From Asticcacaulis benevestitus DSM 16100 = ATCC BAA-896 (lineage in GTDB: Bacteria > Pseudomonadota > Alphaproteobacteria > Caulobacterales > Caulobacteraceae): 64,000 bases of DNA. The notes beneath the pieces are model-generated. The model saw nothing but the letters and a program-made list of their open reading frames with translations. It was not told the origin of the DNA and made no database searches. Shown here piece after piece: positions 1 to 13,907 of the stretch (position 1 is its first letter; every line of letters begins with the position of its first letter). Position numbers and translations under genes: made by a program. The stretch covers positions 186,001 through 250,000 of the forward strand of contig NZ_AQWM01000003.1 of assembly GCF_000376105.1 (NCBI RefSeq), written 5' to 3'.

Positions 1-57
1 CAGGGCGGCGGCTCAAAGGACACCTGGGTGCTTGAAGATGAAGCGGAGGCAAACTGA
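1..57 (+). CDS. Circularly permuted ATP-grasp protein, C-terminal end only
   Basis: The window opens inside this gene; only 18 codons and the stop remain, ending in GGGSKDTWVLEDEAEAN. The GGGSKDTWVL tail is typical of the circularly permuted type-2 ATP-grasp family (DUF404/DUF407), whose members are usually paired with an alpha-E gene. The TGA overlaps the ATG of the next gene (TGATG at 55-59), so the two are translationally coupled. The family is thought to form peptide-type bonds in an uncharacterised small-molecule or peptide modification; the substrate is unknown. The identification rests on a short tail plus the neighbour. Confidence 0.7.
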   Translation, partial: QGGGSKDTWVLEDEAEAN

Positions 58-995
58 TGCTGAGCCGTGTCGCCAACTCCATCTACTGGATGGCCCGCTA
101 TCTCGAACGCGCCGATTGCGTGGCGCGCTTCATCGACGTCAACACCCATCTGATGCTCGATCTGGCGCTCGATCAGAACTCGGCCCAGTGGTATCCTCTG
201 ATCGCCACCTCCGGCGACGACGAGGACTTCACCCGCCGCTACAAGCAGGCGGATGAAAGCACCGTGGTCAAGTTCATGACCTTCGATCGCAATAATCCCA
301 ATTCGATCCTGCAATGTATCTTCCGCGCCCGCGAAAACGCCCGCACGGTGCGCGAGGTCATTCCGGTCGAGATGTGGGAGAAGATCAACGAGCTTTACCA
401 CCTGACGCAAAGCCAGAGCCGCAAGCGCTCCGTGGCCGATCTGCAGGACTATTACCGCGAGGTGCGCCAGTCCGGCCACCTGTTCACCGGCCTGATGCAC
501 AACACGATGAGCCGTGACATGGGCTGGCAGTTCGCCCACCTCGGCCAGATGCTGGAGCGCGCCGACAAGACCGCCCGCCTGCTCGATGTGAAATACTTCC
601 TGCTGCTGCCGCACAATGACGTCTGGAAGGACAGCGCCTATGACGCCGTGCAGTGGGGCGCCGTGCTCAAATCGGTCAATGCGCTGGAAATGTACCGCCA
701 GCAGTTCCACACCATCAACTACAAGGACGTGACGCAGTTCCTGCTGTTCTCCAAGGCCTTCCCGCGCTCGGTCCTCTTCTGTCTGGAAGACGCCTCCGCC
801 GCGCTCGATACCCTGACGCACGACAAGGCCGAGGCCAACAAGGCGACACGCGAAATGGCGATCCTGTGCAAGACCATCCATAGCTCCGACGCCAGCCATA
901 TCATCTCGGCCGGCCTGCACGAGTTCATCGATATCTTCCAGTACAACCTCAACCTGGTCGACGAAGCGATCTACGAAAGCTATTTCAAGGATTAG
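57..995 (+). CDS. Alpha-E domain protein (DUF403)
   Basis: A 312-residue, largely alpha-helical protein beginning MLSRVANSIYWMARYLERAD, the characteristic opening of the alpha-E (DUF403) family; the later repeat of this pattern (GQMLERADKTARLLDVKY, about residues 162-179) is also typical. The length fits the family (about 310). It follows a circularly permuted ATP-grasp gene with a TGATG overlap, the standard genomic pair, often accompanied by transglutaminase and proteasome-like peptidase genes; those are not downstream here. The biochemical role is unknown; context analysis of the family suggests a peptide-synthesis or modification system. The TAG stop is also the first three bases of a palindromic repeat (993-1096). 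Confidence 0.9.
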   Translation: MLSRVANSIYWMARYLERADCVARFIDVNTHLMLDLALDQNSAQWYPLIATSGDDEDFTRRYKQADESTVVKFMTFDRNNPNSILQCIFRARENARTVREVIPVEMWEKINELYHLTQSQSRKRSVADLQDYYREVRQSGHLFTGLMHNTMSRDMGWQFAHLGQMLERADKTARLLDVKYFLLLPHNDVWKDSAYDAVQWGAVLKSVNALEMYRQQFHTINYKDVTQFLLFSKAFPRSVLFCLEDASAALDTLTHDKAEANKATREMAILCKTIHSSDASHIISAGLHEFIDIFQYNLNLVDEAIYESYFKD

Positions 996-1096
996 AGCGT
1001 CTTCCGATCTGATTGGATCAGATCGGCGCTCTAAATTTTTGTTTTGACGCACTTTTTAATCCGAAAAATGCGCCACACTTTTCGGAAAGCGCTCTG
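993..1096 (+). repeat. Palindromic extragenic repeat, copy A
   Basis: A roughly 105-bp element with two parts: a large imperfect inverted repeat centred on GATTGGATC (arms carrying AGAGCG and CGCTCT), then a T-rich stretch and a second small hairpin around CCGAAAAATGCG / ACTTTTCGG. The same arrangement in the same orientation recurs at 40124-40230. Elements of this build (AGAGC...GCTCT palindrome followed by TTTTGTTTTxACGC) are known as dispersed intergenic repeats in alphaproteobacteria. The copy begins exactly at the TAG stop of the alpha-E gene, so it may also act as a transcript end. Confidence 0.8.
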
Positions 1097-1130
1097 AGCT
1101 TCGTCTTTCAAAGCTTCCGGTTCCCGCGGT

Positions 1131-1159
1131 CATATGATACGGTATATCCTTATCATATG
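1131..1159. promoter_or_regulatory. Inverted repeat upstream of the 1168 gene, candidate operator
   Basis: Two perfect 9-bp arms, CATATGATA (1131-1139) and TATCATATG (1151-1159), flank an 11-nt AT-rich spacer (GGTATATCC within it). The right arm runs directly into the GGGGAA ribosome-binding sequence of the gene starting at 1168. Placement and symmetry suggest a repressor site, or an mRNA hairpin that would occlude the ribosome site. No regulator can be assigned from sequence alone. Confidence 0.5.
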
Positions 1160-1167
1160 GGGAAATC

Positions 1168-2220
1168 ATGCGTTATCCGGCCTGTTTAATCGTCCTTGCC
1201 GCCAGCCTTGCCTTTCCGGCTCTCGCTCAGGATAATGCCGACATCGAAGCCCTCAAGGCGGCGGTGACGCAAAACGCCGATCCGGATTATCATGTCCTGC
1301 CATTGGCGCTTGAAGAGAGCGGCAAGATGCTCCAGCATTTTACCCAGACCAAGAGCACCACACGCGGCAGTGTCACCCAAAGCGGCACCGGCACGGCGGA
1401 TTACAGCCTTGTCTATGCGCAGACTGAAGATGGCTACCGCGTCACCAAGACCCTGCTCAAGTTCGCGATCTCCGATGTCACCGATCCGGCCATCAAAGAG
1501 GGTATGAAGGACCCGGCCGCGGCGAAGATGATGGAAAACCTGACCTCCGCCCTGTCGCCGCTCAGCTACAGCGCCGATGAAAGCCTGTCACCGGTCCTGA
1601 TCGAGGACTGGGAAGGCACGAAGGCGCGCGTCATGAAGGCCGTGAACGACATGGCGGCGAGTGTCGGTGCCTCGCCTCAGGAAGCCGCGCAACTCAAACA
1701 AGCCATGAATGCCGTCTATGGCCAGCTCACGCCGGAAACCGCCACCGGCATGTTCCTTGAAACCGATCGCATGATGGCGCTGCCGCACAATATCGGCCTA
1801 AGCCTGAACAAGCCGATCACCGCCACCAGCCAGATCCAGATGCCGCTGGGCGGTCAGCCGATCGACGCTCAGGTAAGCATCGCCCTCATAAGCTGGAATG
1901 ATGCCGGCAATACGGCGCATGTCAGCTATGACTACGCCCCGACACCGGAGTCATTGAAGACCTACCTTACCACCTTCCTGCCCACATTCATGAAACAGGC
2001 GGGCGCGCCCGCCGCCGCCATTGCCGAGCTGGAAACCGCGATGTCGTCCGCGTCGCCAGATGACTATATGAAGATCACCACGCACTGCGATTACGACATG
2101 GCCATCGATACAGGCGTCGTGACCAAGGGCGTCTGTGACAAGATCGTGGCGATGAATTTGATGGGTGAAAAAGGCGGCTCAACCGAGCGTCAGGTATACA
2201 GCGAATCCTTCGTCGACTGA
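1168..2220 (+). CDS. Secreted hypothetical protein, 350 aa
   Basis: I do not recognise this family. The N-terminus MRYPACLIVLAASLAFPALAQ is a clear Sec signal peptide with likely cleavage after ALA (about residue 20), so the mature protein is periplasmic or outer-membrane associated. The mature part is soluble-looking, with no further membrane segments; two cysteines near the C-terminus (THCDYDM and KGVCDKI) could form a disulfide. A GGGGAAATC ribosome site precedes the ATG. The gene stands alone, with a palindromic candidate operator just upstream and a regulator gene, probably unrelated, downstream. Confidence 0.75.
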   Translation: MRYPACLIVLAASLAFPALAQDNADIEALKAAVTQNADPDYHVLPLALEESGKMLQHFTQTKSTTRGSVTQSGTGTADYSLVYAQTEDGYRVTKTLLKFAISDVTDPAIKEGMKDPAAAKMMENLTSALSPLSYSADESLSPVLIEDWEGTKARVMKAVNDMAASVGASPQEAAQLKQAMNAVYGQLTPETATGMFLETDRMMALPHNIGLSLNKPITATSQIQMPLGGQPIDAQVSIALISWNDAGNTAHVSYDYAPTPESLKTYLTTFLPTFMKQAGAPAAAIAELETAMSSASPDDYMKITTHCDYDMAIDTGVVTKGVCDKIVAMNLMGEKGGSTERQVYSESFVD

Positions 2221-2426
2221 CAAAAACGCACGCTCACAGCCCTAAGATTAGTCTTACAATTTAAGGCGATACGTCCTATAGAATAAAAGTGAGGCAAGGC
2301 GTTGCCGGTTAAGGGAATGGCCGGAAAATCTTACCGCATAAGCGCCACCAGGGCGTGCATAGAAACGGCCTGTAGCGGAAATATCCGCACGGGGAAATGC
2401 TGATACTTACCCCGGAGGGGTTGCAA

Positions 2427-3689
2427 ATGGGTGCGGATAACACAGGTGCGGATCATAGAGATGCAGATGGGCGCACGGTTGCGGGCAAATCGGAACCCAG
2501 GGTGCATACCCTTGGTGACTCGCTGTCAGGCACCAATCTGGAGCGCGCCGGCGACCATAATCAGCGCGTCACCCTGCAGGCCGTGCGCGCCGCTGGCGCC
2601 CCCATCACCCGCGCCGATATCGCCGATCTGACCGGGCTGACCGCCCCGGCCATCGCCAACATCACCAAGCGCCTGCTCAATGACGGCATGATCCTCAAGG
2701 CCGGACGGCAATTCGGCGGGCGCGGCCAGCCGGCCACCAAGCTGGTGGTCAATCCCGACGGTGCCTTCTCCATCGGCCTCAATATCGATCGCGACCACAT
2801 CGCCATCGTGGCGCTCGATTTCCTCGGCAATGTGCGCGCCCGCGCCTGCCGCGAAGTCCATTTCGCCATGCCCGATGAGGTCGTGGCCTTCTTCAAAGCC
2901 GAAGTCGACAAGATCGTCGCCGACAAGATCATCGATCTGGAGCGCCTCGTCGGTATCGGCATCGGCCTGCCCGATGATCTCGGCCGTGTGCCGGTGGCCA
3001 ATCGCCCGGACGCCTATCAGGTGTGGTCGGAGATTGACGTCGCCGCGCTGTTTAATGAAGTGCTGCCGGTGCCGGTCTACATCGAAAACGACGCCGCCGC
3101 CGCCTCGATCGGCGAGATGCAGTTCGGCCATGGCCTGCGCAACCGCAGTTTCATCTACACCATCATCAGCGCGGGTCTGGGCGGTGGTCTGGTCATTGAC
3201 GGCCACTATTATCGCGGCGCCGATGGCCGTTCGGGCGAGATCGGTTTCCTGCCGGTGAAGGACGAAAACGGTCAATCGCAATCGCTGGAAGACATGGTGT
3301 CGCTCTATGCGCTCTATGATTATCTGCGCAAGGCCGGCTTCGAGGTTTCGACACCGGAGGATCTGGAAAACCTGCCCGCGGAAGCGCAAAGTCGGGTCGA
3401 TGCCTGGCTTGACCGCGCCGCCAACCATCTGTTCGAGCCGTTTCTGGTCATGAGTTGCGCCATCAATCCGGAAGCGCACTTTATCGGCGGCCGCCTGCCC
3501 GCCACCTATATCGAGGCTCTGTGTACGCGTCTGAACAGGAAGTTTGAATCCTATCACGGCCGGATCAAGACGCTTGCGCCGGTCAAGCGCGCCGAACTGG
3601 CGGTCGATGCCGCCGCGCGCGGCGCCGGTATCCTGCCGTTCAATGACCGCTATCTGCCGATCCGCGAAGCCCTGATGAAGACGAGCTGA
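2427..3689 (+). CDS. ROK-family transcriptional regulator
   Basis: A 420-residue protein with an N-terminal winged-helix DNA-binding part (ITRADIADLTGLTAPAIANITKRLLNDGMI, roughly residues 50-85) and a ROK sugar-kinase-like domain (GAFSIGLNIDRDHIAIVALD onward; GLGGGLVIDGHYYRGADGRSGEIG near residue 265). The CxCGxxGC zinc motif of ROK kinases is absent, as in some regulatory members, so it is read as a sugar-sensing repressor rather than a kinase. I chose ATG 2427 because GGAGGGG sits 6 nt upstream; the ATG at 2397 has no correctly spaced site. No sugar genes adjoin it, so the ligand is unknown. Its stop overlaps a 40-codon membrane peptide gene. Confidence 0.85.
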   Translation: MGADNTGADHRDADGRTVAGKSEPRVHTLGDSLSGTNLERAGDHNQRVTLQAVRAAGAPITRADIADLTGLTAPAIANITKRLLNDGMILKAGRQFGGRGQPATKLVVNPDGAFSIGLNIDRDHIAIVALDFLGNVRARACREVHFAMPDEVVAFFKAEVDKIVADKIIDLERLVGIGIGLPDDLGRVPVANRPDAYQVWSEIDVAALFNEVLPVPVYIENDAAAASIGEMQFGHGLRNRSFIYTIISAGLGGGLVIDGHYYRGADGRSGEIGFLPVKDENGQSQSLEDMVSLYALYDYLRKAGFEVSTPEDLENLPAEAQSRVDAWLDRAANHLFEPFLVMSCAINPEAHFIGGRLPATYIEALCTRLNRKFESYHGRIKTLAPVKRAELAVDAAARGAGILPFNDRYLPIREALMKTS

Positions 3690-3811
3690 TGGGAAAGCTT
3701 AAGCTCCGCGCCATTGAGCTACTTTGGTTTGCAGCCATTATTGCCGCCGCCGCGACGACGTTTTTTCTGGCAAACAAGTTGATTGAACCTTTAATAATCT
3801 ACTCGTTTTAG
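3689..3811 (+). CDS. Small single-span membrane peptide, 40 aa
   Basis: A 40-codon frame whose ATG overlaps the ROK regulator's TGA (TGATG), implying coupled translation. It encodes a basic N-terminus (MGKLKLR), one strongly hydrophobic helix (LLWFAAIIAAAATTFFLA, about residues 11-28) and a short tail ending in IIYSF. The positive-inside charge pattern favours an inner-membrane peptide with its N-terminus in the cytoplasm. It ends 12 nt from the convergent nrsF stop. No family recognised; support is the overlap and the clean membrane-helix composition, so it remains a prediction. Confidence 0.5.
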   Translation: MGKLKLRAIELLWFAAIIAAAATTFFLANKLIEPLIIYSF

Positions 3812-3823
3812 ATTTTCCTGGGC

Positions 3824-4486
3824 TTACCATTTTAGAAGCTTCGCGCCCAACAGCGCCGCGATGGCGCTGGAAACTGCCACGGCCGTGCCGTAAAACAGCA
3901 GAAGATAGATCGCCGCATCCATATTGCAGTGGATCGCATAGGCCGCCGCCATCAGGGACGCCGCCGCCAGACCGCTCATGGCGCCCAGCAGCACCGGATG
4001 CGAGGTCGCCGTCCGGCGCAACCACAACCGCCACATCGCGACCAGCCCCGCCATACCACCACAAAGAATGGTGATGAAACAGACATGGCCGCCGCCGTTA
4101 AGCTGGCGGGCAAAATTGTCGGTGCCGAAAATCGCCATCTCCGACAACAGATTGCCCAGAACCAACCCAAAAACGGCCAATACCGGCAGCAGATGCAGCA
4201 GTTTCAAGCGCCCTTCCGGACGGGCCAGATCCGCAACCGCCCATAGTGCGCTGAAACCCATCACCAGAAAGATCGCAGGCTTGCCGATCACCATCGGATT
4301 GACCAGCGCGCCACCGCGCATCAGGGCGACGATATCGCCACGCGGACCGTAGAACACAAAAATGTAGATAAGCGCCACCACGAGACCGACCGCCGCGCCG
4401 ATCCACAGCGGGGCGCTGCGCAACCGCTTCACCGGTGTCAGGCCAGAGGTCAGGCTATCGAGCAAGACGTCGTCAGGACTACTCAT
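3824..4486 (-). CDS. nrsF: NrsF-type anti-sigma factor (DUF1109)
   Basis: A 220-residue inner-membrane protein with about six predicted helices after a short cytoplasmic N-terminus (MSSPDDVLLDSLTSGLTPVKRL), matching the NrsF/DUF1109 family. Conserved cysteines are seen at HVCFITILCGG and in the family-typical AYAIHCNMDAAIYLLLFYGTA near the C-terminus; in Caulobacter NrsF, paired cysteines are reported to be needed to respond to metal and oxidant stress. It overlaps the end of sigF by 8 bp, the expected sigma/anti-sigma arrangement. It should hold SigF inactive at the membrane until stress. Length is normal. Confidence 0.88.
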   Translation of the reverse strand: MSSPDDVLLDSLTSGLTPVKRLRSAPLWIGAAVGLVVALIYIFVFYGPRGDIVALMRGGALVNPMVIGKPAIFLVMGFSALWAVADLARPEGRLKLLHLLPVLAVFGLVLGNLLSEMAIFGTDNFARQLNGGGHVCFITILCGGMAGLVAMWRLWLRRTATSHPVLLGAMSGLAAASLMAAAYAIHCNMDAAIYLLLFYGTAVAVSSAIAALLGAKLLKW

Positions 4487-5027
4487 CCGCCGCCTCCCGC
4501 TTTGACACGCCGACCAGGGCCTGCAATTTCTTGAGCCCGCGATGCACGATCACCTTGACCGCCGAGGGGCTCTTGCCGGTGGCGCGAGACACCTCGTCGA
4601 CGCTCATATCCTGCAGTTTGTGCAGGCTGATCACCCGCGCCTGATCCTTCGGCAACTGCGCCAGCAGCACCGCCACATCGCGCGCCGCCAGATCTGGCTG
4701 CATGCCATCGGCGAGACCCAGTTCCTCATTCAACTCGACATGGACGTGACGGCCGGTCTTACGCACATAGTCGATCAGCTTGTGACGCGCCACCGCGGCG
4801 ATCCACGGCATGAACGGCGCGTCAGGATTATAGGTGTGGCGTTTCTCGTGTAAGCTCAACAGGGTCATTTGTACCAGATCTTCACCCTCGCTGCCGTGCA
4901 GGCGGCGTCGGAAATAGGAAAGCAGCCAGGGCCGCAAAGCGCTGAGCAGCGATCTGTACGCCTGCGCATCACCGGCTTGTGCGGCGCGCATCAGATCCTG
5001 CCATTCCTGAGAGTTATACGTCGGCAT
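4479..5027 (-). CDS. sigF: ECF RNA polymerase sigma factor, SigF type
   Basis: A 182-residue ECF sigma factor: region 2 at about residues 15-85 (LRPWLLSYFRRRLHGSEGEDLVQMTLLSLHEKRHTYNP, then PWIAAVARHKLIDYVRK) and region 4 at about 118-170 (LPKDQARVISLHKLQDMSVDEVSRATGKSPSAVKVIVHRGLKKLQ). Linkage to nrsF assigns it to the SigF group, which in Caulobacter drives a small metal/oxidative-stress regulon. The start at 5027 has no clear ribosome site; an internal Met at residue 13 (MRAAQAGD) is an alternative, made more interesting by a SigF-like promoter at 5017-5042. The gene follows a flagellin by only 27 bp. Confidence 0.88.
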   Translation of the reverse strand: MPTYNSQEWQDLMRAAQAGDAQAYRSLLSALRPWLLSYFRRRLHGSEGEDLVQMTLLSLHEKRHTYNPDAPFMPWIAAVARHKLIDYVRKTGRHVHVELNEELGLADGMQPDLAARDVAVLLAQLPKDQARVISLHKLQDMSVDEVSRATGKSPSAVKVIVHRGLKKLQALVGVSKREAADE

Positions 5028-5042
5028 GGGGCCTATGGTTAC
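5017..5042 (-). promoter_or_regulatory. sigF: Candidate SigF-type promoter (GTAACC-N16-CGTA)
   Basis: On the minus strand GTAACC (5042-5037) is followed by 16 nt and CGTA (5020-5017). This resembles the Caulobacter SigF promoter pattern as I recall it (GTAACC, 16-nt spacer, CGAA) and would give autoregulation. It overlaps the annotated sigF start, so if it is used, translation of the short transcript would begin at the internal Met near 4991. It is a pattern match only. Confidence 0.35.
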
Positions 5043-5054
5043 AATCGCGCGGCA

Positions 5055-6197
5055 TCAGTTGAACAACTGCAGCAAGACACGCGGCGCCGAATTGGCAATG
5101 GCGAGGCTTTGCTGGATCAGACTCTGCTGTGTCTGATCTGCCTGCCACAGAGCGGACTGCTTTGCAAGGTCGGCATCGACCAGGTCACCGTGGGCGGTCT
5201 CCAGAACATCGGCGCGTTTCACGCTGGACGCTGACATCCGCTCCAGCCTGTTTTGCAGGGTGCCGAAATAGGCCGCGCTGTCGAGGGTGGTCGATAGCGC
5301 CGCCTCGACCGTACTGAGAACCGTAGCGGCATCGAGACTATTCAGATCATTCAGGCCCAGATCGGCCGAGCCCATGGGCTTGTGGGTCATGGACACGGTT
5401 TCGCCCGAAGCGTAGGCGGTAATCTCGGTCGTGTCGGCCGGAATAAAATTGACCCCCGGAATATGGAAGCCGCTCGTGCCCCCGGCCCCGCCTGGCCCCG
5501 AGGCGGAAATAGAATAGGTCATGGTATGGTTATCCCAACCGGCCTCATAGTCGTGCTGGATGACCTTGTTGTCGGTGAACGCCGGTCCCGAACTGTAGTT
5601 GAACGTGTACTGGCTGCCGTCCCCCCAGTCTATATTGACGTTGGCACTGTTGACGTTATGGAGATTAAGGTAAAAGTCCATGCGACCGGCGCCATTACCC
5701 GCATCATAATTGACGTAGGATGACCCGCCGCCGACAATGCCCCCATAGGGTCGACCCCAGTTCTTCGTGGCCTTGCCGCTGGTTTGCAGCAGATTAATGC
5801 CGTTGAAATCACTGGTTTTGGCCGTGCTGTCGAGCTGGCTGTTGAGGGCGTTCAGATCATCCCTGACCGATTGCAGGGCCTCAGGCGACAGCGATGTGTC
5901 ATTGAGCATGGGCGCGCGCTCGTGCATCTGGCCCAGCAGATCCGTGATCGTCTCGGCCGAACCCCGCGCGACATCCACAATGGACTGCGCGCGGGAGAGG
6001 TTGTTCTGCACCACACCTTGCGACATCTGATCGCTTTTGACGCGGGTGGCGATGGCGTAGGCGGCGCCATTATCGCGGGCTGACTGCACCTTGAGGCCCG
6101 AAGCGATCTGGGCGCGGGTTGTATCCATCTTCTGATTCAGGCTGGCCAGTCCCTGACGGGCTGACATCGAACCTTCATTGCTCAGGAGGGATAACAT
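5055..6197 (-). CDS. Flagellin with a PKD-like central insert
   Basis: A 380-residue flagellin. The N-terminal helices (residues 1-140, e.g. ARQGLASLNQKMDTTRAQIASGLKVQ and NNLSRAQSIVDVARGSAETI) and C-terminal helices (about 285-380, ending SLAIANSAPRVLLQLFN) form the conserved D0/D1 core of filament subunits, secreted by the flagellar type III apparatus without a signal peptide. Residues about 174-233 carry VNIDWGDGSQYTF and, 20 residues on, HDYEAG...MTYSISASG, the layout of a PKD beta-sandwich. Ordinary Caulobacter flagellins are about 270 residues, so roughly 100 residues are extra. No flagellar genes adjoin it; sigF-nrsF follow on the same strand. It may be an accessory or surface-exposed variant flagellin. 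Confidence 0.85.
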   Translation of the reverse strand: MLSLLSNEGSMSARQGLASLNQKMDTTRAQIASGLKVQSARDNGAAYAIATRVKSDQMSQGVVQNNLSRAQSIVDVARGSAETITDLLGQMHERAPMLNDTSLSPEALQSVRDDLNALNSQLDSTAKTSDFNGINLLQTSGKATKNWGRPYGGIVGGGSSYVNYDAGNGAGRMDFYLNLHNVNSANVNIDWGDGSQYTFNYSSGPAFTDNKVIQHDYEAGWDNHTMTYSISASGPGGAGGTSGFHIPGVNFIPADTTEITAYASGETVSMTHKPMGSADLGLNDLNSLDAATVLSTVEAALSTTLDSAAYFGTLQNRLERMSASSVKRADVLETAHGDLVDADLAKQSALWQADQTQQSLIQQSLAIANSAPRVLLQLFN

Positions 6198-6337
6198 AAA
6201 ACGCGCGTTCCTAACGTCATCTCCAGAAACGCGGAGTCAGAAAAATACCTTTCCTAAATTTACCTAACAAATTTTAAATGTGAATTAAAACATATCCAGA
6301 AAACGCAGGCGCCTTACAAGACGATGAGGAGCAACGC

Positions 6338-7372
6338 CTAGGAATCGAACAGGTCCGACGTCGGTGCGGCCTGCGCCGGCGGCGTCAGGCCGAGATGCAG
6401 ATAGGCGCGCGCGCAGGCCGTGCGGCCGCGCTGGGTGCGCTGGATAAAGCCCTGCTGCAACAGGTAGGGCTCGATCATGTCCTCGACCGCGTCCTTGGCC
6501 TCGGCGATCGCCGCCGCCAGGGTTTCCAGCCCCACCGGTCCGCCGCCATAGTTCTCGATGAGGGCGCGCAGATAACGCCGGTCTGAGTGATCAAGCCCAA
6601 CCGCATCGACTTCGAGACGCGCCAAAGCCTTGGCCGCCGCCTTCTTGTCGATCACCGCCGTGCCATCGGCCGCCGCGAAATCTCGCACGCGGCGCAGCAA
6701 ACGCCCGGCCACGCGCGGTGTGCCGCGTGAGCGCGAGGCGATCTCGAGTGCGCCGTCTTCCGAGACCTGGGCGCCCATCTTGCGGCCGGTGCCCATGACC
6801 ACGCGCACCAGTTCTTCAGGCGTATAGAATTCGAGCCTAAGCGGTATGCCGAAGCGATCACGCAAGGGGGTCGACAGCAGACCAGCCCGCGTCGTGGCGC
6901 CCACCAGCGTGAACGGCGCCAGATCGATGCGCACCGTGCGCGCCGCCGGCCCGTCACCGATGATCAGGTCGAGCACATAGTCTTCCATAGCCGGATAGAG
7001 GATTTCCTCGACCACCGGATGCAGGCGGTGGATTTCATCGATAAACAGCACATCGTTGGGTTCGAGATTGGAAAGGATCGCCGCCAGATCGCCCGCCTTG
7101 GCCAGCACCGGCCCGGACGTGGCGCGAAAACCAACACCCAGTTCACGCGCCACGATCTGCGCCAGCGTCGTCTTGCCCAGCCCCGGCGGCCCATAAAACA
7201 GCACGTGATCAAGCGCCTCGGCGCGCTGCGCCGCCGCCGCCACAAAGACCTTCAGATTGGCCTTGAGCGGCGCCTGCCCGACGAAATCGTCGAAATTCTG
7301 CGGCCGCAGCGCACGATCCTGTGCGCGCTCCTCGAAATCGCTATCGGATTCGCCTGAAATAAGCCTCGCCAT
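6338..7372 (-). CDS. ruvB: Holliday junction branch migration DNA helicase RuvB
   Basis: A 344-residue AAA+ motor that, loaded by RuvA, drives branch migration at Holliday junctions. Begins near the family landmark [12 protein letters not shown]; Walker A is [13 protein letters not shown] (about residues 60-72), Walker [10 protein letters not shown], sensor ATTRAG, and the C-terminal winged helix ends in [20 protein letters not shown]. Length is standard. It starts directly after the ruvA stop, completing ruvC-ruvA-ruvB. Confidence 0.97.
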
Positions 7373-7984
7373 TTACTTGCCCAACGCCTTCAGCGAGGCA
7401 CGGATCACCGCCGCCAGCTCCGCCTCAGGCCCCAGAGTCTTCAAGGCGGTGTCGACCGCGATGCGTGATTGCTGCTCGGAAACGCCCAGCCCCATCAAGG
7501 CGGCGACGCTCTCGCCATTGACCGTCGGCGTCACGGCCGCCGGCGCATAACCGCCAGAGGCGATCGGCGCAAATTCGGCGCTCATCAGCACCTTGCCCTT
7601 AAGTTCGATAACGATGCGCTGCGCCAGCTTGGGCCCGACGCCATTGGCGCGCCCCACCGCCGTCTTGTCCTCATGCGCCACCGCCTGCGCCAGTTGCTGC
7701 GGCGTCAGGATATCGAGCACGCTCAGCGCTGCCTTCGGCCCCACGCCCTGCACGCCCTGCAGCACCACATAGGCCTTGCGCTCATCCTTGTTGAGGAAGC
7801 CGTAAAGCCGAGTGCCATCCTCGCGCGTCTGGCTTTCGATATGCAGGATCACCTCGGCGCCCAGTTCGGGCATGTTGGCGATGGTGCGGATACCGCAGCG
7901 CACGACGTAACCAACGCCGCCACATTCGACCAGCACCTCCTCGTCGGTGGTTTCCAGCAAAAGTCCGCGCAAACGCCCGATCAT
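7373..7984 (-). CDS. ruvA: Holliday junction branch migration protein RuvA
   Basis: A 203-residue junction-binding protein: an OB-fold start (MIGRLRGLLLETTDEEVLVECGGVGYVV), two helix-hairpin-helix regions (LQGVQGVGPKAALSVLDIL and ANGVGPKLAQRIVIELK, about residues 70-125) and the flexible-linked C-terminal domain that regulates RuvB (about 155-203). Its start overlaps the ruvC stop by 4 bp (ATGA) and it abuts ruvB, so the three should be one transcript. Confidence 0.97.
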   Translation of the reverse strand: MIGRLRGLLLETTDEEVLVECGGVGYVVRCGIRTIANMPELGAEVILHIESQTREDGTRLYGFLNKDERKAYVVLQGVQGVGPKAALSVLDILTPQQLAQAVAHEDKTAVGRANGVGPKLAQRIVIELKGKVLMSAEFAPIASGGYAPAAVTPTVNGESVAALMGLGVSEQQSRIAVDTALKTLGPEAELAAVIRASLKALGK

Positions 7985-8490
7985 GCGACACTCCGTTTCA
8001 AACTCGCCATCTTGCGCTTATGGGCGTGCGTGATGGCGCACGCAAGCGCATCGGCCGCATCGGCCTTCATCTTCGGATCGGCCTTGGGCAGCAGGCGCTT
8101 GACCATGAACAACACCTGATCCTTGTCGGCGCGGCCGGCGCCCACCACCGATTTCTTGATATCGAGCGCGGCGTATTCCGCTACCAGCATACCGGCCTTC
8201 GCGGGCGCCAGCATGGCGGCGGCACGCGCGTGACCGAGCTTGAGCGTCGAGGCCGGGTTCACATTGACGAACACCTCTTCAATGGCCGCCTCATCGGGCG
8301 TCCATTCGGCAATGACATCGCTCAGGCGATCGAACAGCTCCAGCAGGCGCACCGACAGATCGGCGTCCGTCGCCGGCTCGATGACGCCATGCGCCACCCA
8401 GCTCAGGCGCGCGCCCTCGACATCGATCAGCCCCCAGCCGAGCCGTCTCAAACCGGGATCGAGCCCTAATATCCGCACTACGTTCTTCAT
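7981..8490 (-). CDS. ruvC: Crossover junction endodeoxyribonuclease RuvC
   Basis: The Holliday junction resolvase of the RNase H fold. Acidic active-site residues are visible in RILGLDPGLRRLGWG (D10), AAIEEVFVNVNP (EE near 70) and the C-terminal MKADAADALACAITHAH. I start at ATG 8490 (MKNVVRILGLDPG), giving the usual 169 residues; the frame stays open a further 24 codons upstream to 8562 but that part has no family similarity. First gene of ruvCAB. Confidence 0.95.
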   Translation of the reverse strand: MKNVVRILGLDPGLRRLGWGLIDVEGARLSWVAHGVIEPATDADLSVRLLELFDRLSDVIAEWTPDEAAIEEVFVNVNPASTLKLGHARAAAMLAPAKAGMLVAEYAALDIKKSVVGAGRADKDQVLFMVKRLLPKADPKMKADAADALACAITHAHKRKMASLKRSVA

Positions 8491-8687
8491 ATGTTCGCTT
8501 TTATCCGCAAGTTCTGACTCGCGCAATGGCCAAGCCGGCAGTTTGGCCGCAAAGTTGCACAACAGCCTCTTATCAGGCCAGAAATCGTCTTTCTGGCACA
8601 GGTTTTAGAGATAAGCCCCACGAGAGCATTGCCATAAGGCCAAAGCTGGGGTTAATGTTTTATGAAGATTAGCGTTGCGGGGGCCGC

Positions 8688-10508
8688 ATGAGCAGTTCGA
8701 ACTTGACCTTGAATGCCGATAACCGTGGGACGAGCACGACACGCAAGCCCGGCGCTGCGGGGTTTCTGATTCTCGCCGTGCTGGCCGCCGCCCTGAGCGC
8801 CTTCGCGCTCTACAAGGGTCAGGCCCCGGTTCGCACCCCCTTCCCCGAAGACTGGATCATCTGGGCGCGCGGCACCGCTGCCTGGGCTGGCATCCTGGCG
8901 CTGGGTGCCTTTCTGCTGCTGATCGGCGTGATCGGCACCCTCCGCAACCTGCTGCCTGCGCCCAAACCCGCCGTGTCTGCGCCGCGCCGTAAATCCAGAC
9001 CGGAAGCCGTCGAGGCCGCGCCCGCGCCGGTCATGGCCGTGGCTGAGGACATGCAGGAGGACATGCAGTCGGCCACCCGCGCCGCCGAGAGCCGCGGCAC
9101 CCTGCATTTCAACGCCCATACGCTGGAGAGGGCTCCGGCTTTTGAAAGCCCTCAGGCCGTTGAGGCGATGCCTGACAATGTCCATATCGAAGCAGCCGCC
9201 GTCGCTGTCGAGCCGCCGCACATCGAGGTTCAGTCGCTGGAGCCTGCCATCTTCACCGATCACGCCGCCTTCTCCGATAACGCGTCGGACAGCTTCATGA
9301 CGCGCCACCCTGAAGTCGTGGTCGAGACCGTCGCCGAGGTGCCTGTTTTCGATTCCAGCGCCGCCCTGGCCGATACCCACGGCCTGACCATCACCACGCC
9401 CACGGCGCAGATCATTCCGCTGCATCCGCCTGTCGAAACCGTGGCCGCGCAGGATGAGGATCACGATCCGCTGGCCGCCGCCCTGCTGCGCGAAACCCCC
9501 GATGTCGTGACGCACGCCCCGCAAGGCGATATCAACGCCGTTATCAGTTCGGCCATGCGTTTCGCCCCGCAAAGCGAACCGCACGTCGCTGTCGTGCCGG
9601 CAGCCGCACCTGAGGCCGCGCCAGAGGCCATACCGGTCGCGCTGACAGAGGTCGTGACACAGGAAATCGCCTCTGCCGAAATCGTCGCTGATGTCCAGCC
9701 CGCGCCGGTCGTGCCCGTGCCCGTTGTCATCGACGATGAAGCGGAAATCCGTCAGGCCGTACAAACCGCCCTGTCGGTCTGGCCCGACGCCACCCGCGCC
9801 ATCGCCGCCGACGAACTGAGCACGCGCATTTCACGCCTCTATTATGATAAGTCGGCTGCCAGCCAGAAGGCCTTCCAGCTTATCGCTTCCGGTGACCTGT
9901 CCGCCGCTTCCGCCGCCCTGGCCAATCACGCCGATGCCCTGGCGCTGGCGGGCAACCATGCCGAGGCCGCCGAGTTGTGGCGCGTATCTGGCGCACTCCA
10001 TATGGGCCGCGATGACAGCAAGGCCATGGCTGCCTATGAGCATGTGTCCGAACTTGACCCGAACGACGCCAACATCCACCTCTACCTGACGCGCCGGTAT
10101 CAGATGTCGGGCGACACCGCCAAACTGCCTGCCGTCATCGGCCGTGCACTCGGCGCCATTAGCGATCCGGCCACGCGCGCCGAACTGCTGGCGCCCTATG
10201 CCGATCTCAAGCTCAAGGCGGGCGATGCCAGGGCCGCCGGCGATGCCTTTGAGGAGCTGAGCCGCCTGCACGAAACCACCGCCTATCTCAAGCCCGATGA
10301 TGTCGGGGCGCGCTCGACCCACGCCATCACCCTGGCGCGTTACGCCCAGGCGCGCGAAATGCAGGGCGCTTTCGATCAGGCCGGTCCGCTCTACAAGAAG
10401 GCCTATGGGGTTTTCGCCGATCTCTCGGCCCTGAAACCGGAGCATCCCGGCCTGCGCGCCATGGCGGAAAACGCCCTGAAAGACGCCCAGCGCTTCAATA
10501 TGGCATAA
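8688..10508 (+). CDS. TPR-containing inner-membrane protein, unassigned
   Basis: A 606-residue protein with two N-terminal transmembrane helices (about residues 24-43 and 64-87) separated by a short loop, a long low-complexity Ala/Val/Pro/Glu-rich stretch (about 90-350) and a helical C-terminal third with tetratricopeptide-like repeats (e.g. AAALANHADALALAGNHAEAAELWRVSGALHMGRDDSKAMAAYEHVSELDPNDANIHLYL, about 400-470). The repeats suggest a protein-interaction module on the cytoplasmic side. GGGGG precedes the ATG. It is divergent from ruvC; no functional partner is nearby. I do not recognise a named family. Confidence 0.8.
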   Translation: MSSSNLTLNADNRGTSTTRKPGAAGFLILAVLAAALSAFALYKGQAPVRTPFPEDWIIWARGTAAWAGILALGAFLLLIGVIGTLRNLLPAPKPAVSAPRRKSRPEAVEAAPAPVMAVAEDMQEDMQSATRAAESRGTLHFNAHTLERAPAFESPQAVEAMPDNVHIEAAAVAVEPPHIEVQSLEPAIFTDHAAFSDNASDSFMTRHPEVVVETVAEVPVFDSSAALADTHGLTITTPTAQIIPLHPPVETVAAQDEDHDPLAAALLRETPDVVTHAPQGDINAVISSAMRFAPQSEPHVAVVPAAAPEAAPEAIPVALTEVVTQEIASAEIVADVQPAPVVPVPVVIDDEAEIRQAVQTALSVWPDATRAIAADELSTRISRLYYDKSAASQKAFQLIASGDLSAASAALANHADALALAGNHAEAAELWRVSGALHMGRDDSKAMAAYEHVSELDPNDANIHLYLTRRYQMSGDTAKLPAVIGRALGAISDPATRAELLAPYADLKLKAGDARAAGDAFEELSRLHETTAYLKPDDVGARSTHAITLARYAQAREMQGAFDQAGPLYKKAYGVFADLSALKPEHPGLRAMAENALKDAQRFNMA

Positions 10509-10558
10509 GGCCTGCTTGGATTTTATTTGCGCCGCGCTAACAACGTGAGAATGTCTGC

Positions 10559-10789
10559 GTGAATCCCTGGAGCCTCCCCTTCTTTGAATACTGCTTTCAG
10601 GTGCCGGCCAACCGTATCGGTTACAGCACCTTTTCAGCCGCCCAGCTCAAGACCATCCAGGAAGTCATTATCCTGGTGGTTTTCGTCATCTTTTCCGCGC
10701 TTTATCTTGGCGAACCGCTGAAATGGCAGACCGCCATCGGCTTCACCCTGATCGCCTGTGGCGCCGGGTTTGTGTTCTACATGCCCTAA
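10559..10789 (+). pseudogene. DUF486 membrane protein, 5'-truncated remnant
   Basis: The 76 readable residues (PWSLPFFEYCFQVPANRIG, then AAQLKTIQEVIILVVFVIFSALYLGEPL and a last helix to the stop) match the C-terminal two thirds of DUF486 proteins, small four-helix membrane proteins of about 110 residues. The first helix and part of the second are missing: the frame opens at a GTG and an in-frame TAA lies about 20 bp upstream. The adjacent TPR gene ends at 10508, leaving no room for the rest. I read it as a decayed or deleted gene; expression as a short protein cannot be excluded. Confidence 0.65.
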
Positions 10790-10867
10790 AAAACAGCCCA
10801 GATAACAGCGTCATCAATTTGCCTGTTTTCGCGCCGATCCTCGGTAAATAGCAAGGGAGGCGCGGTT

Positions 10868-11926
10868 ATGAGCTCAGGACTTACACGTTTCAGCTTTCTC
10901 TCCGGCGGACTGGCCTTTGCGGCCCTTCCCGCCCTGGCGGCAACAGCAAGCCGGACAGAGGCACGCACTATTGCCTCGAAACACTTTATCCATAACAAGA
11001 TCGGCCTGAGTCCGGATCGCGCGATTAGCGTCTACCTGCCGGCCGGTTATGATACCGGCAAGCAACGCTATCCGGTCATCTATATCCTGCCCAATCTCTT
11101 CGATACCGATACGACGCTTTTCGCCACCTATGGCGCGCAGGCGGTCTTCGATGCCGCCATCACCAAAGGCCTGATCGGCGAGGTCATCATCGTCTCGGCC
11201 GATTTCAGCACGCCGCTCGGTTCCTCGCTCTATGTCAATTCCCCCGTCACCGGCAACTGGGAAGACTATATGGTCAGCGAACTGGTGCCCTATATCGACA
11301 GAACCTACCGCACCCTGCCCGCCGCCGCCTCACGCGGTGTGGCCGGCGATCGCATGGGCGGTCACGGCGCCATCCGTTTCGGCATGAAGCATCCCGATAT
11401 GTTCGGCTCGATCTATGCGCTCCATCCGGTCGGTACAGGCAACGGCGTCCAGATCATGCAAGGGCGGCCGAACTGGGATCTCCTCAGTCAGGCGACATCA
11501 CTCGAAGACGTCAAGGCCGATATTTTCTCGCAGATCTTCACCGCCATCTATCAGGCCCATCTGCCCAATCCGGGCAAGGCGCCGCTGTTCGTTGATCTGC
11601 CCGCTAAAAAGGTCAACGGCGAACTGGTGATCGATACCGCCCTCACCGCCAAGCTCCAGGACGGTTTTTTCCTCGAACGCATGATCCCGGCCTATGCCGA
11701 CAATCTGAAACGCCTGCGCGGTTTCAAGTTCGACTGGGGCCGCAATGATGGCAATTTCGACCATGTCTATTCCAATCAGGCCTTCGCCCATAAGCTCGAC
11801 GAATTCGGCGTCGCTTACGAGGCCGAGGAATATCGCGGATCATGGGGTGAGCGCCATTGGGGACCGAACGGCCGCGTTATGACCGACGTGCTGCCCTTCT
11901 TCGCGCAGCATCTGGCCTTCGCATAA
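10868..11926 (+). CDS. Secreted esterase-D-fold protein lacking the nucleophile serine
   Basis: A 352-residue alpha/beta hydrolase of the putative esterase (esterase D / antigen-85-like) family, with a signal-like N-terminus (FSFLSGGLAFAALPALAATA). Fold landmarks: ISVYLPAGYDTGKQRYPVIYILP, SELVPYIDRTYRTLP, and GHGAIRFGMKHPDMFGSIYALHP. At the nucleophile elbow, where the family has GxSMGG, the sequence reads GDRMGG (residues 160-165): Arg162 replaces the catalytic Ser. A C-terminal His (GERHWG) is kept. If this is real the protein is probably not a serine hydrolase and may be a binding protein. AAGGGAGG precedes the ATG. It stands alone upstream of the PadR module. Confidence 0.8.
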   Translation: MSSGLTRFSFLSGGLAFAALPALAATASRTEARTIASKHFIHNKIGLSPDRAISVYLPAGYDTGKQRYPVIYILPNLFDTDTTLFATYGAQAVFDAAITKGLIGEVIIVSADFSTPLGSSLYVNSPVTGNWEDYMVSELVPYIDRTYRTLPAAASRGVAGDRMGGHGAIRFGMKHPDMFGSIYALHPVGTGNGVQIMQGRPNWDLLSQATSLEDVKADIFSQIFTAIYQAHLPNPGKAPLFVDLPAKKVNGELVIDTALTAKLQDGFFLERMIPAYADNLKRLRGFKFDWGRNDGNFDHVYSNQAFAHKLDEFGVAYEAEEYRGSWGERHWGPNGRVMTDVLPFFAQHLAFA

Positions 11927-11993
11927 ACCGTCTAAAAGCTGAAACCCTTACAGAGACAGCGTTCGCCAAACCTTACTACTATTTAATGATATA

Positions 11994-12012
11994 TACCTTG
12001 CATCAATAGGTA
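11994..12012. promoter_or_regulatory. Short inverted repeat upstream of padR
   Basis: TACCT (11994-11998) and AGGTA (12008-12012) are mirror-complementary arms in an AT-rich stretch otherwise unlike its high-GC surroundings, about 70 bp before the PadR gene. PadR regulators usually repress their own operon from such a position. The arms are only 5 bp, so this is a weak candidate. Confidence 0.25.
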
Positions 12013-12082
12013 GCTTGTCATATTCAATGACCAAGCGGCCTCCTCCCCGGCCGCGACACTTTCAGCGCGTCGAGGACTTCGA

Positions 12083-12436
12083 ATGCCGGAAACCATTGAT
12101 ATACAATTGAAAAAAGGCGTGCTTGGCCTGTGCGTCCTGGCCGTCCTGGCGCGCAATGAGAGCTATGCCTACGAGATCGCCAGCCACCTCTCCGATGCCA
12201 TTGGCATGGGAGAGGGCACGATTTACCCGCTGATGCGCCGCATGCAGACCGACGGCCTGGTCACCACCTATCTGGTGGAATCCTCATCCGGCCCTTCGCG
12301 CAAATATTACAAACTGACCGATGCCGGTCGCGCCGCCCTGGACGCCCAGGCCGCCGAATGGCGCGGTTTCGCCGCAGCTGTCGACGCCCTGCTAGAGCCC
12401 GTTCCCGTCGCCAACGCTCCCTTAGAAGAGGCCTGA
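12083..12436 (+). CDS. PadR-family transcriptional regulator
   Basis: A 117-residue winged-helix regulator: QLKKGVLGLCVLAVLARNESYAYEIASHL begins the DNA-binding domain, then GEGTIYPLMRRMQTDGLVTTYLVESSSGPSRKYYKLTDAGRAAL, the family's recognition helix and wing. Length is that of short PadR proteins. It is first of three close genes, with a HAAS-domain protein and a secreted GIN-domain protein following within 3 and 10 bp, so it most likely controls that operon. The signal sensed is unknown. Confidence 0.92.
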   Translation: MPETIDIQLKKGVLGLCVLAVLARNESYAYEIASHLSDAIGMGEGTIYPLMRRMQTDGLVTTYLVESSSGPSRKYYKLTDAGRAALDAQAAEWRGFAAAVDALLEPVPVANAPLEEA

Positions 12437-12439
12437 ATC

Positions 12440-13000
12440 ATGACCCGTATCGAATTTCTGGACCGGCTGTGCAAGGGCCTGACCGGGCTCCCGCCCGCCA
12501 CGCTCAAAGAAATCATGGCCGACTATGAGGCCCACTTCAAGGATGCCGCCGCCGAAGGGCGCTCCGAATCCGAAGTGGCCGCCGCCCTCGGCGATCCCGA
12601 ACGTCTCGCCCGCGAACTGAAGGCCGAAGCCGGCGTCAAAAGCTGGGATGAGGCCAAGACGCCCTCCAACGCCACCGCCGCCATCGTCGGTATCCTGGGG
12701 CTCGGCGCGCTCGATATCCTGATCCTGCTGCCGCTGCTCGGCGGTGTGGTCGGCACGCTGATCGGCATCTTCGCCGCAGCGATCGGCGGCTTTATCGCCG
12801 GCGGTGTCGTCTTCGCGGCCGGTCCTTTCCTCGGCTTCCCCGGTGGGATCTTCGCCGCCCTGCTCGGTGGTTTCGGCGTCATGCTGCTGTCCGCCGCCGT
12901 CGGCGCCATCACCCTGGCCCTGACCATCTGGATGGTCAACGGTGTGGTCTGGTTCGCCCGCCTGCATTACCGCGTGCTCAAGCCCGCGCTTGAATCTTAA
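12440..13000 (+). CDS. HAAS-domain membrane protein (DUF1700)
   Basis: A 186-residue protein with an N-terminal helical HAAS domain (RIEFLDRLCKGLTGLPPATLKEIMADYEAHFKDAAAEGRSESEVAAALGDPERLAREL, residues about 3-60) and then several hydrophobic glycine/alanine-rich helices (about 75-170) that make it an integral membrane protein. In other bacteria HAAS proteins sit between a PadR regulator and a DUF4097/GIN adhesin-like protein, exactly as here, and are viewed as part of an envelope-sensing unit. Function not established. Confidence 0.88.
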   Translation: MTRIEFLDRLCKGLTGLPPATLKEIMADYEAHFKDAAAEGRSESEVAAALGDPERLARELKAEAGVKSWDEAKTPSNATAAIVGILGLGALDILILLPLLGGVVGTLIGIFAAAIGGFIAGGVVFAAGPFLGFPGGIFAALLGGFGVMLLSAAVGAITLALTIWMVNGVVWFARLHYRVLKPALES

Positions 13001-13010
13001 GGAGACGACC

Positions 13011-13799
13011 ATGATCCGCAAACTTTTTCTCTTCTCCGGTGGCGCCTTCGTTCTGTCGCTGGTCTGCCTGGCCGGGGCCGCCGCCCTTGTCTCCAATGAA
13101 GTCGGCACCAAGGGCTGGAACTGGGGCTGGATACAGGATGGCGACACCGTCCGTTTCCGCAACGGCCCCTCGGCCAAGCCCGAACCGAACACCAGCAAGA
13201 CGCTGGCCTGGTCCGGCGGTGACCTTCTGGCCGTCGATCTGCCCGCCGATGTCGTCTATACCCAAGGCCCTGCTGCTTCGGTGACGATCACCGGCCCGCA
13301 GTCGCTCGTCGATCGCATCAAGCTGGAAAACGGCCGCCTGTCGATCGCCGATGGCGCTGACCACAAGGAAAGCATCAACTTCACCTGGGGCAAGGACGGC
13401 TTCGACGCCCGCACCAGCCATGAAGGTGCCCGCATCACCGTCACCGCACCGGCGGTCAAGCGCTTCGAGATGACCGGCAGCGGCGATCTCGACCTGCGCG
13501 GCTATGATCAGCCGTCGATCGATATCAATATCGCCGGCTCCGGTTCGGTCCATGCTGTCGGCCGCACCCAGACGCTCAAGCTCAATGTATCGGGCAGTGG
13601 CGACGCCGATCTGGCCGCCCTTCAGGCCAAGGACGCCGACGTCTCGGTCAGCGGTTCGGGCGGCGCCGATGTCTACGCCACCGACAAGGCCAAGATCGAT
13701 ATTTCCGGCTCCGGCAATGTCGATCTGGCCACCAAGCCGGCCAAGGTCGACACCACGATCTCGGGCTCCGGCACGGTCGATCAGGATGATGACAACTAG
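13011..13799 (+). CDS. Secreted GIN-domain protein (DUF2807, putative auto-transporter adhesin head)
   Basis: A 262-residue protein with an N-terminal membrane or signal segment (MIRKLFLFSGGAFVLSLVCLAGAAALV) and a C-terminal beta-repeat domain built on the recurring SGSG pattern (MTGSGDLDLRG, IAGSGSVHAVG, VSGSGDADLAAL, VSGSGGADVYA, ISGSGNVDLATKP, ISGSGTVDQ; about residues 150-260), the hallmark of GIN/DUF2807 parallel beta domains. It is third in the PadR-HAAS-GIN operon. The start at ATG 13011 follows GGAG; the frame opens earlier (12942) inside the HAAS gene but that extension is not protein-like. It probably resides in the periplasm or at the cell surface. Confidence 0.85.
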   Translation: MIRKLFLFSGGAFVLSLVCLAGAAALVSNEVGTKGWNWGWIQDGDTVRFRNGPSAKPEPNTSKTLAWSGGDLLAVDLPADVVYTQGPAASVTITGPQSLVDRIKLENGRLSIADGADHKESINFTWGKDGFDARTSHEGARITVTAPAVKRFEMTGSGDLDLRGYDQPSIDINIAGSGSVHAVGRTQTLKLNVSGSGDADLAALQAKDADVSVSGSGGADVYATDKAKIDISGSGNVDLATKPAKVDTTISGSGTVDQDDDN

Positions 13800-13830
13800 A
13801 GCAGCACTTTAGGAGCGCGTTCTGTTAACC

Positions 13831-13856
13831 CCTCTCCCCATGACCATGGGGAGAGG
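13831..13856. repeat. Perfect GC-rich stem-loop (CCTCTCCCCATG / CATGGGGAGAGG)
   Basis: Twelve-base-pair perfect arms around a 2-nt centre, between the GIN gene and the convergent DUF429 gene. There is no T-tract, so it is not a canonical terminator, but its place between convergent genes would suit a bidirectional transcript end. Related CCTCCCC...GGGGAGG sequences occur at 16930-16952 and, degenerate, near 20830-20862, which suggests a dispersed intergenic motif. Confidence 0.6.
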
Positions 13857-13907
13857 CAAGCTTGAAGCCAGCCCGTGTCCTTATGCGCTAAATGAAAACG
13901 CCGGTTC

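What the first reader, a model, noticed from the sequence alone, without database searches (positions are those of the whole stretch)
5055..6197. Flagellin carrying a PKD-like beta-sandwich insert
Residues 174-233 have IDWGDGS followed by HDY and alternating beta pattern, the PKD layout, inserted between intact D0/D1 helices. Flagellin variable domains that copy a known carbohydrate- or protein-binding surface fold would decorate the filament surface. I do not know a described PKD flagellin.
Basis: partly seen in the sequence, partly recalled or inferred. Interest (0 to 1): 0.7.

Follow-up and report, generated by a model that had tools for sequence, protein, structure and literature searches.

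The report
Accessory flagellin with beta-sandwich outer domain
This bacterium carries an unusual spare flagellin gene (flagellin is the building block of the swimming filament) with an extra surface domain that probably resembles a domain type known from surface proteins, although the standard tests for that domain came back negative.

Summary
On the minus strand at 5055-6197 lies a complete 380-aa flagellin (both Pfam halves over cut-off) with a ~135-aa insert between the D1 halves. The insert holds IDWGDGS and, 20 residues after GDG, HDY. Both are kept in a 41%-identical orthologue. The insert is rare: 3 of 299 family genomes, all of this genus. Of 44 flagellin ORFs extracted from the genus, 39 are 269-277 aa, without an outer domain.

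The PKD reading is partly supported. No PKD model hits the insert at E<=10, and direct profile comparison with PKD_4 is no better than shuffles. AlphaFold (pLDDT 70) gives an all-beta domain, but Foldseek lists carbohydrate-binding jelly rolls (TM about 0.4), none titled PKD. In favour: the motif's flanks match a viral IDWGDGT...HxY family that is PKD-like (0 of 1000 shuffles; chance-motif controls 4, 14 and 31).

The gene sits between ruvB and a sigF-nrsF operon with its own conserved promoter. It lacks the sigma-54 element seen before 28 of 37 ordinary genus flagellins. Best reading: an accessory flagellin displaying a PKD-like D2 domain, function untested.

The parts
5055..6197 (-). flagellin gene, 380 aa
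   Evidence: Pfam Flagellin_N and Flagellin_C above cut-off; translation
5772..6197 (-). N-terminal D0/D1 core, residues 1-142
   Evidence: Flagellin_N 7-140; helices 5-32, 37-99, 105-128 in a low-confidence model
5367..5771 (-). inserted outer domain, residues 143-277 (folded as 145-272)
   Evidence: no Pfam family on the 130 aa tested; all-beta model pLDDT 70.4, pTM 0.70; conserved in two relatives
5499..5678 (-).
   Evidence: window insert scores 28.5 bits against the viral IDWGDGT profile, 0 of 1000 motif-fixed shuffles reach it; no direct PKD hit
5616..5633 (-). IDWGDG motif, residues 189-194
   Evidence: invariant in the three orthologues
5547..5555 (-). HDY, residues 215-217
   Evidence: H215 and Y217 invariant in the three orthologues
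5058..5366 (-). C-terminal D1/D0 core, residues 278-380
   Evidence: Flagellin_C 295-379; helices 290-337 and 343-379 in a low-confidence model
5017..5042 (-). SigF-type promoter GTAACC-N16-CGTA of the downstream sigF operon
   Evidence: GTAAC-type element at the sigF start in 13 of the 13 closest sigF loci of the genus, 17 of 23 examined; GTAACC-N16-CGAA in Caulobacter (PMC3511200, passages)
4479..5027 (-). ECF sigma factor, sigF-like, 27 bp downstream of the flagellin
   Evidence: Sigma70_r2 and r4_2 above cut-off
3824..4486 (-). NrsF, negative regulator of sigma F
   Evidence: PF06532 E 3.3e-27
6338..7372 (-). ruvB, upstream neighbour
   Evidence: RuvB_N, AAA_lid_4, RuvB_C

Best explanation
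A specialised accessory flagellin. The core polymerises into the flagellar filament like any flagellin. The ~135-residue insert forms one outer (D2) domain, a beta-sandwich whose centre is a PKD-like unit of the IDWGDG...HxY kind, so a filament containing this subunit carries it as a repeated surface. The likely role is contact with surfaces or extracellular polymers. Shown: flagellin core, insert, conservation, rarity in the genomes searched, gene setting, no sigma-54 pattern upstream. Predicted: beta-sandwich and PKD-like relation. Inferred only: incorporation into filaments and adhesion.
For: Both flagellin domains above cut-off. All-beta insert model with block pLDDT up to 87. Insert under purifying selection between the two close copies: dN/dS 0.052, 3 aa differences in 135 codons, versus 0.228 and 0.123 in the N and C cores. 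Motif flanks match the viral IDWGDGT...HxY profile: window insert 28.5 bits, G021 insert 34.3 bits, 0 of 1000 motif-fixed shuffles each, against 4, 14 and 31 of 1000 for three recombinases with the same motif. That viral family is PKD-like: 45.3 vs null maximum 22.6, 0 of 300, and 7 of 8 members that I picked match PKD models at E<=10, 3 over cut-off. No sigma-54 pattern before 4 of 4 large flagellins, present before 28 of 37 others.
Against: No PKD model hits the insert at E<=10. Direct comparison with PKD_4: 16 of 300 free shuffles and 173 or 92 of 300 motif-fixed shuffles score as high. In the profile-profile test the recombinase control did about as well as the insert (44.3 against 45.5, each 0 of 300; the insert's shuffle maximum was 45.3). 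Classical PKD has W where the insert has I189, and mostly 9 residues between GDG and HxY where it has 20. Foldseek's 50 listed hits name no PKD. The two inserts tested are orthologues, not independent. No direct evidence of expression, assembly or binding.
Confidence: 0.42

Rival explanations
1. The same accessory flagellin, but the insert is a jelly-roll domain of the carbohydrate-binding-module kind and IDWGDG is a convergent turn motif. It would bind polysaccharide through the jelly roll.
For: Foldseek of the insert model: CBM70, CBM35, CBM6 and CBM61 entries among the 50 listed, E from 2.1e-3, TM (query) 0.32-0.44; in the full-length search the first hit from outside flagellar structures is the same CBM70 entry 4d0q (rank 42). 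The 41% orthologue lies near two GH16, a GH26 and a TonB receptor gene.
Against: All 50 query TM scores are below 0.5 and 0 PDB hits have E<=0.001; the list also holds Cry toxins, viral capsid entries and MAM domains, that is, beta-sandwiches in general. No CBM family in Pfam at E<=10. No such genes beside the window copy (ORFs 1-14000 by eye; six neighbours scanned).
Confidence: 0.25
2. The D2 domain has no ligand. It acts mechanically, by contacting neighbouring D2 domains along the filament and changing its stiffness or surface, as the single D2 domain of Sinorhizobium meliloti FlaA does.
For: S. meliloti FlaA has one D2 domain and a similar length (395 aa), and its D2 dimers form a screw-like surface (PMC8931119, passages). 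It is the only full-span match among the best ten of the single-sequence PDB search.
Against: The insert shows no sequence match to a Sinorhizobium sp. K101 flagellin (best E 3.3), and no flagellin filament is among the 50 Foldseek hits listed for the insert. A purely mechanical spacer need not keep W.RPY, IDWGDG, HxY and GF.IP invariant.
Confidence: 0.25
3. A silent or decaying copy: a transferred flagellin gene that is not expressed.
For: Lone gene without the sigma-54 pattern of most other flagellins; my two patterns (sigma-54 and GTAAC) found no promoter upstream.
Against: Open reading frame kept in three genomes; dN/dS 0.127 overall between the close pair.
Confidence: 0.08

Closest known systems
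Caulobacter crescentus FljK/FljL/FljM/FljN flagellins
   Same: Closest solved sequences for the core (seven best rows, phmmer E 1.7e-32 to 5.1e-30)
   Different: 270-273 aa, no room for an outer domain; this protein has ~110 more residues
Sinorhizobium meliloti FlaA (7sn9), single-D2 flagellin
   Same: Similar length and layout, one outer domain; full-length alignment E 2.7e-23
   Different: No sequence match found for the insert, using a Sinorhizobium sp. K101 flagellin as stand-in
Flagellinolysin and other flagellins with a foreign domain in the hypervariable region (PMC5595980)
   Same: A domain inserted at the same place; that paper counts 61 putative domain families there (passages)
   Different: That domain is a metallopeptidase; the term PKD has 0 occurrences in the main text
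PKD domains (PF00801, PF18911) and the IDWGDGT...HxY domains of viral contigs
   Same: Central motif, HxY and following strand; scores above motif-fixed shuffles against the viral family
   Different: No Pfam hit; I instead of the PKD W; 20-residue gap; extra predicted strands on both sides
Azospirillum brasilense RpoE6-Asf6-FliC2 (PMC12826043, abstract and outline)
   Same: An ECF sigma and anti-sigma pair next to a minor flagellin in an alphaproteobacterium
   Different: There the sigma factor controls the flagellin. Here sigF has its own conserved promoter and lacks the flagellin beside it in 21 of 23 loci examined, so neighbourhood is no evidence of control

Membership tests
Flagellin | N- and C-terminal helical regions above Pfam cut-offs | tested here: met
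   69.9 and 34.3 bits against 26.6 and 23
Flagellin | Assembly into the filament | not testable with these tools
   needs protein from sheared filaments
PKD domain (PF00801/PF18911) | Profile match above cut-off | tested here: not met
   No hit at E<=10 on the whole protein, the insert, or the own-genome scan
PKD domain (PF00801/PF18911) | W-D-F-G-D-G type motif | tested here: inconclusive
   IDWGDG: D, aromatic, G, D, G kept, first W replaced by I; the I form recurs in viral-contig PKD-like domains
PKD domain (PF00801/PF18911) | HxY about 9 residues after GDG, then a strand | tested here: inconclusive
   HDY present but after 20 residues; of 25 PKD_4 rows printed, 15 gave 9 and one gave 10 for a loose HxY pattern, and my regex misread some others
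PKD domain (PF00801/PF18911) | Seven-stranded Ig-like sandwich | tested here: inconclusive
   All-beta model with 10 strands, pLDDT 70.4; no PKD named among 50 Foldseek hits listed
Carbohydrate-binding module, jelly-roll type | Sequence family match | tested here: not met
   No CBM in Pfam at E<=10
Carbohydrate-binding module, jelly-roll type | Jelly-roll fold | tested here: inconclusive
   CBM70/35/6/61 entries among the hits, but TM<=0.44 and E>=2.1e-3

The most novel reading that the evidence does not exclude
A flagellar filament that displays a dense array of PKD-type binding domains: an adhesive flagellum made from a dedicated, separately regulated flagellin, found so far only in three genomes of the Asticcacaulis group, and one of a pair of large accessory flagellins in this genome (the other carries EF-hand-like repeats).
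Probability: 0.22. Interest if true: 0.6.

Novelty: new variant of a known kind. Interest (0 to 1): 0.38.

Why it matters
Flagellin outer domains are known to be replaced by foreign domains, once by an active protease (PMC5595980). A binding domain of an adhesin-type fold on a filament would mean that the filament itself is a surface-contact organelle. In a stalked, holdfast-making family (recalled) whose ordinary flagellins in this genus have no outer domain, one added domain is easy to test by deletion. The insert also looks at least as constrained as the core, the reverse of the usual hypervariable outer domain.

Tried and rejected
PKD by direct search: Pfam scans of whole protein and insert, NCBIfam, PHROGs (one hit, E 0.016, to a family of unknown function, for the G021 insert only), PF18911 and PF00801 against the own genome. 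None reached the insert with a PKD model.

Solved-structure search by sequence with the insert profile: 3 matches, best E 0.22 (an adhesin), none named PKD.

First contig scans with the single sequence found no relative: 15 pattern stretches in genome contigs, 1 in viral contigs.

Two weak family-level hits (G179, G206, E 0.006, profile positions 20-82) were set aside as noise: in L044 the only ATG/GTG/TTG ORF of 300 aa or more is on the other strand; L045 was not inspected. The phylum hit in G874 has 3 stops inside.

G015's 439-residue open frame looked like another insert flagellin, but the ORF is an ordinary flagellin with a long upstream frame.

Idea that the flagellin belongs to the sigF operon: set aside, because the sigF-type promoter lies in the gap and is conserved in genomes without the flagellin there. 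Read-through is not excluded.

Idea that the 528-aa flagellin's outer domain is homologous to this insert: a local comparison with its C-terminal piece gave probability 1%.

Full report
What is there. The gene lies on the minus strand, 6197 down to 5055, and encodes 380 residues. Pfam gives Flagellin_N at residues 7-140 (E 3e-19) and Flagellin_C at 295-379 (E 3e-8), both over cut-off; the ~135 residues between match no family. NCBIfam lists 27 families; the 25 shown are flagellin or FlgL/flagellar hook-associated models and none reaches its cut-off. The closest solved sequences for the core are Caulobacter flagellins of 270-273 aa. The own genome has further flagellin matches on three other contigs.

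How rare it is. In the 25 genomes of the genus, matches spanning the insert occur in 3: the own genome, G022 (96% identical) and G021 (42%). With an insert profile, 5 of 299 family genomes match at E<=0.01; 3 are these and 2 are weak hits that I judged noise. In 385 genomes drawn across the class only the own genome matches at E<=0.001. In 398 drawn across the phylum, the G021 insert matches the own genome and one place with three stops inside. Of two scans of GTDB 220 contigs, the first (single sequence) found nothing and the second (insert alignment) found one locus, L046, an uncultured Asticcacaulis MAG contig with the same flagellin ORF and contig length as the G021 locus. The plasmid collection, searched with the G021 insert, and the phage collection, searched with the window insert, gave no match. 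I extracted 44 distinct flagellin ORFs from loci L001-L043 (not from every listed match, and only those with both ends of the core): 39 are 269-277 aa (five of these end early at about profile position 371, apparently cut by the locus end), one is 311, three are the insert type, one is 528 aa.

Conservation. Against G021, identity is 57 of 142 in the N core, 54 of 132 in the insert, and 45 of 103 in the C core. The outer domain is therefore not hypervariable here. Against G022, the insert has 3 amino-acid differences and 15 synonymous codon differences (dN/dS 0.052), the N core 9 and 11 (0.228), the C core 4 and 8 (0.123). The numbers are small, so I claim only that the insert is at least as constrained as the core. 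Invariant in all three: W147, R149-P150-Y151, IDWGDG 189-194, Y197-T198, H215, Y217, T225, T227-Y228, I230, A232-S233, G243-F244, I246-P247.

Is it PKD? Direct tests fail. No PKD model hits at E<=10, with the tools' filters on. Of 28 PKD_4 places listed in a phylum scan I took 27, leaving out one partial (L099), and dropped L084 for stops, leaving 26, of which 13 come from one reading frame in G320. An unfiltered profile of these gives the window insert -0.1 bits and the G021 insert 1.4 bits. The insert-to-PKD_4 profile-profile score was 16.5 in the right register, but 16 of 300 free column shuffles reach it, as do 173 of 300 shuffles with seven motif columns fixed; a reformatted rerun with six fixed gave 92 of 300.

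An indirect test is more favourable. 76 had a usable frame; with a minimum left flank 75 remained, of which 3 are recombinase-like (my reading of the sequence) and were set apart. The other 72 (62 non-redundant) form an IDWGDGT...HxY family. It matches PKD_4 far beyond its null (45.3 against a maximum of 22.6, 0 of 300). Of 8 members that I picked, 7 list PKD models at E<=10, 3 of them over cut-off, one with an unrelated family ranked first; the eighth, L134, has no Pfam hit. The insert scores 45.45 against this family with 0 of 300 shuffles reaching it, but the shuffle maximum is 45.3, and the recombinase control scored 44.3, also 0 of 300. So that test does not discriminate. A first version restricted to 53 members with HxY gave 48.8 against a maximum of 47.3. 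In a single-sequence HMMER test with seven motif residues fixed, the window insert scores 28.5 (null mean 12.0, maximum 25.2, 0 of 1000) and the G021 insert 34.3 (mean 17.1, maximum 33.8, 0 of 1000); the three recombinases are reached by 31, 4 and 14 of 1000 shuffles. Of 16 family members tested leave-one-out, 12 had 0 of 200 and 4 had 15 to 196 of 200. The insert thus lies between the chance controls and typical members: PKD-like is likelier than not, but not proven.

Structure. The whole protein with a two-row alignment gives pLDDT 49.8, helices for the core and strands from 159 to 252. The insert alone gives pLDDT 70.4, pTM 0.70, ten strands, and block means of 85-87 around residues 175-214. 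Foldseek against PDB: 1659 hits at E<=10, 0 at E<=0.001, 50 listed. The first is CBM70 (E 2.1e-3, TM 0.38); CBM35, a Thermococcus subtilisin, a MAM domain, CBM6 and CBM61 follow among others; no listed title names PKD. Against viral models the best of 50 listed is an uncharacterised Arthrobacter phage protein (E 5.3e-4, TM 0.42); the rest are mostly uncharacterised or unnamed, with tail and carbohydrate-binding proteins among them. This says beta-sandwich and no more.

Gene setting. Upstream is ruvB; 27 bp downstream is an ECF sigma gene followed by nrsF. Of 29 sigma matches in the genus I inspected the 23 strongest. 17 of 23 carry a GTAAC-type element at the sigF start, including the 13 closest of 13; six (L115-L120) do not. 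Caulobacter sigma-F uses GTAACC-N16-CGAA (PMC3511200, passages). Here the element lies after the flagellin stop and its -10 falls inside the annotated sigF frame. The flagellin is found between ruvB and sigF only in G000 and G022 of the 23. In G016 and G019 ruvB and sigF are about 45 and 35 bp apart, and in two more ruvB ends about 460 and 720 bp upstream; in the rest no ruvB lies within the 1500 bp held. So the flagellin looks like an addition at this junction, though loss elsewhere is not excluded. In G021 it sits elsewhere, near two GH16, a GH26 and a TonB receptor gene, with sigF on another contig. A crude sigma-54 pattern (TGGC..-TTGC) lies 86-103 bp before 28 of 37 other flagellins and before 0 of the 4 large ones, of 41 upstream regions examined. 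Rows are not independent, and 9 others lack it too.

Origin. In a core tree of 47 flagellins the three insert flagellins and the 528-aa one group together (99/97), but the branches are long, treekit warns of long branches meeting beside this group, and the G021 row has a deviating composition. This is a lead only.

Mechanism. Shown: an intact flagellin core with a conserved, rare, non-hypervariable insert. Predicted: a beta-sandwich with a PKD-like centre. Inferred: copolymerisation and a surface role. That PKD domains are adhesion- or carbohydrate-associated is recalled, not a result here. The mechanical alternative has a good precedent in S. meliloti (PMC8931119, passages), and foreign domains in flagellins in flagellinolysin (PMC5595980, passages). 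ECF control of a minor flagellin is known in Azospirillum (PMC12826043, abstract and outline), but nothing here shows that sigF controls this gene.

Literature. Nothing describing a PKD flagellin appeared in the listings. Three papers hold both flagellin and PKD domain; I did not open them, and they look unrelated by title. The library holds open-licence papers only, so absence there is weak evidence of novelty. Genus name: L046, the same contig as G021's, is titled uncultured Asticcacaulis, and the tool places G021 in the window's genus.

Noticed in passing
L132:1292-2878 (G000 contig C10, minus strand): A 528-aa flagellin whose long insert carries EF-hand-like stretches (EF-hand_7 E 1.9e-4, below cut-off). 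It groups with the window flagellin in the core tree with long branches; a 266-aa insert query matches whole only in the own genome of 249 family genomes, with two short partial matches. No paper held flagellin, EF-hand, calcium and flagellar filament together.
   Followed up: partly
L132:307-1005: Beside that flagellin, near the contig end, an ORF with DUF6538, a domain I recall from integrase N-termini.
   Followed up: no
window 5017-5042: SigF-type promoter conserved across much of the genus, with its -10 inside the annotated sigF reading frame, so the true start codon may lie further downstream.
   Followed up: partly
L131:3399-4911 (G015 contig C2): Cas9-like fragment (HNH_4, RuvC_III) whose reading frame runs into a repeat array of 66-bp period that looks like CRISPR, next to an ordinary flagellin gene.
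   Followed up: no
L134-L213: IDWGDGT...HxY PKD-like domains are frequent in viral contigs, and one of eight tested (L134) has no Pfam hit at all; three recombinase-like proteins carry the same IDWGDGT string.
   Followed up: partly
L046:1070-9286: In the uncultured Asticcacaulis MAG the orthologue lies among GH16, GH16, GH26 and a TonB-dependent receptor, which looks like a polysaccharide-use neighbourhood.
   Followed up: partly
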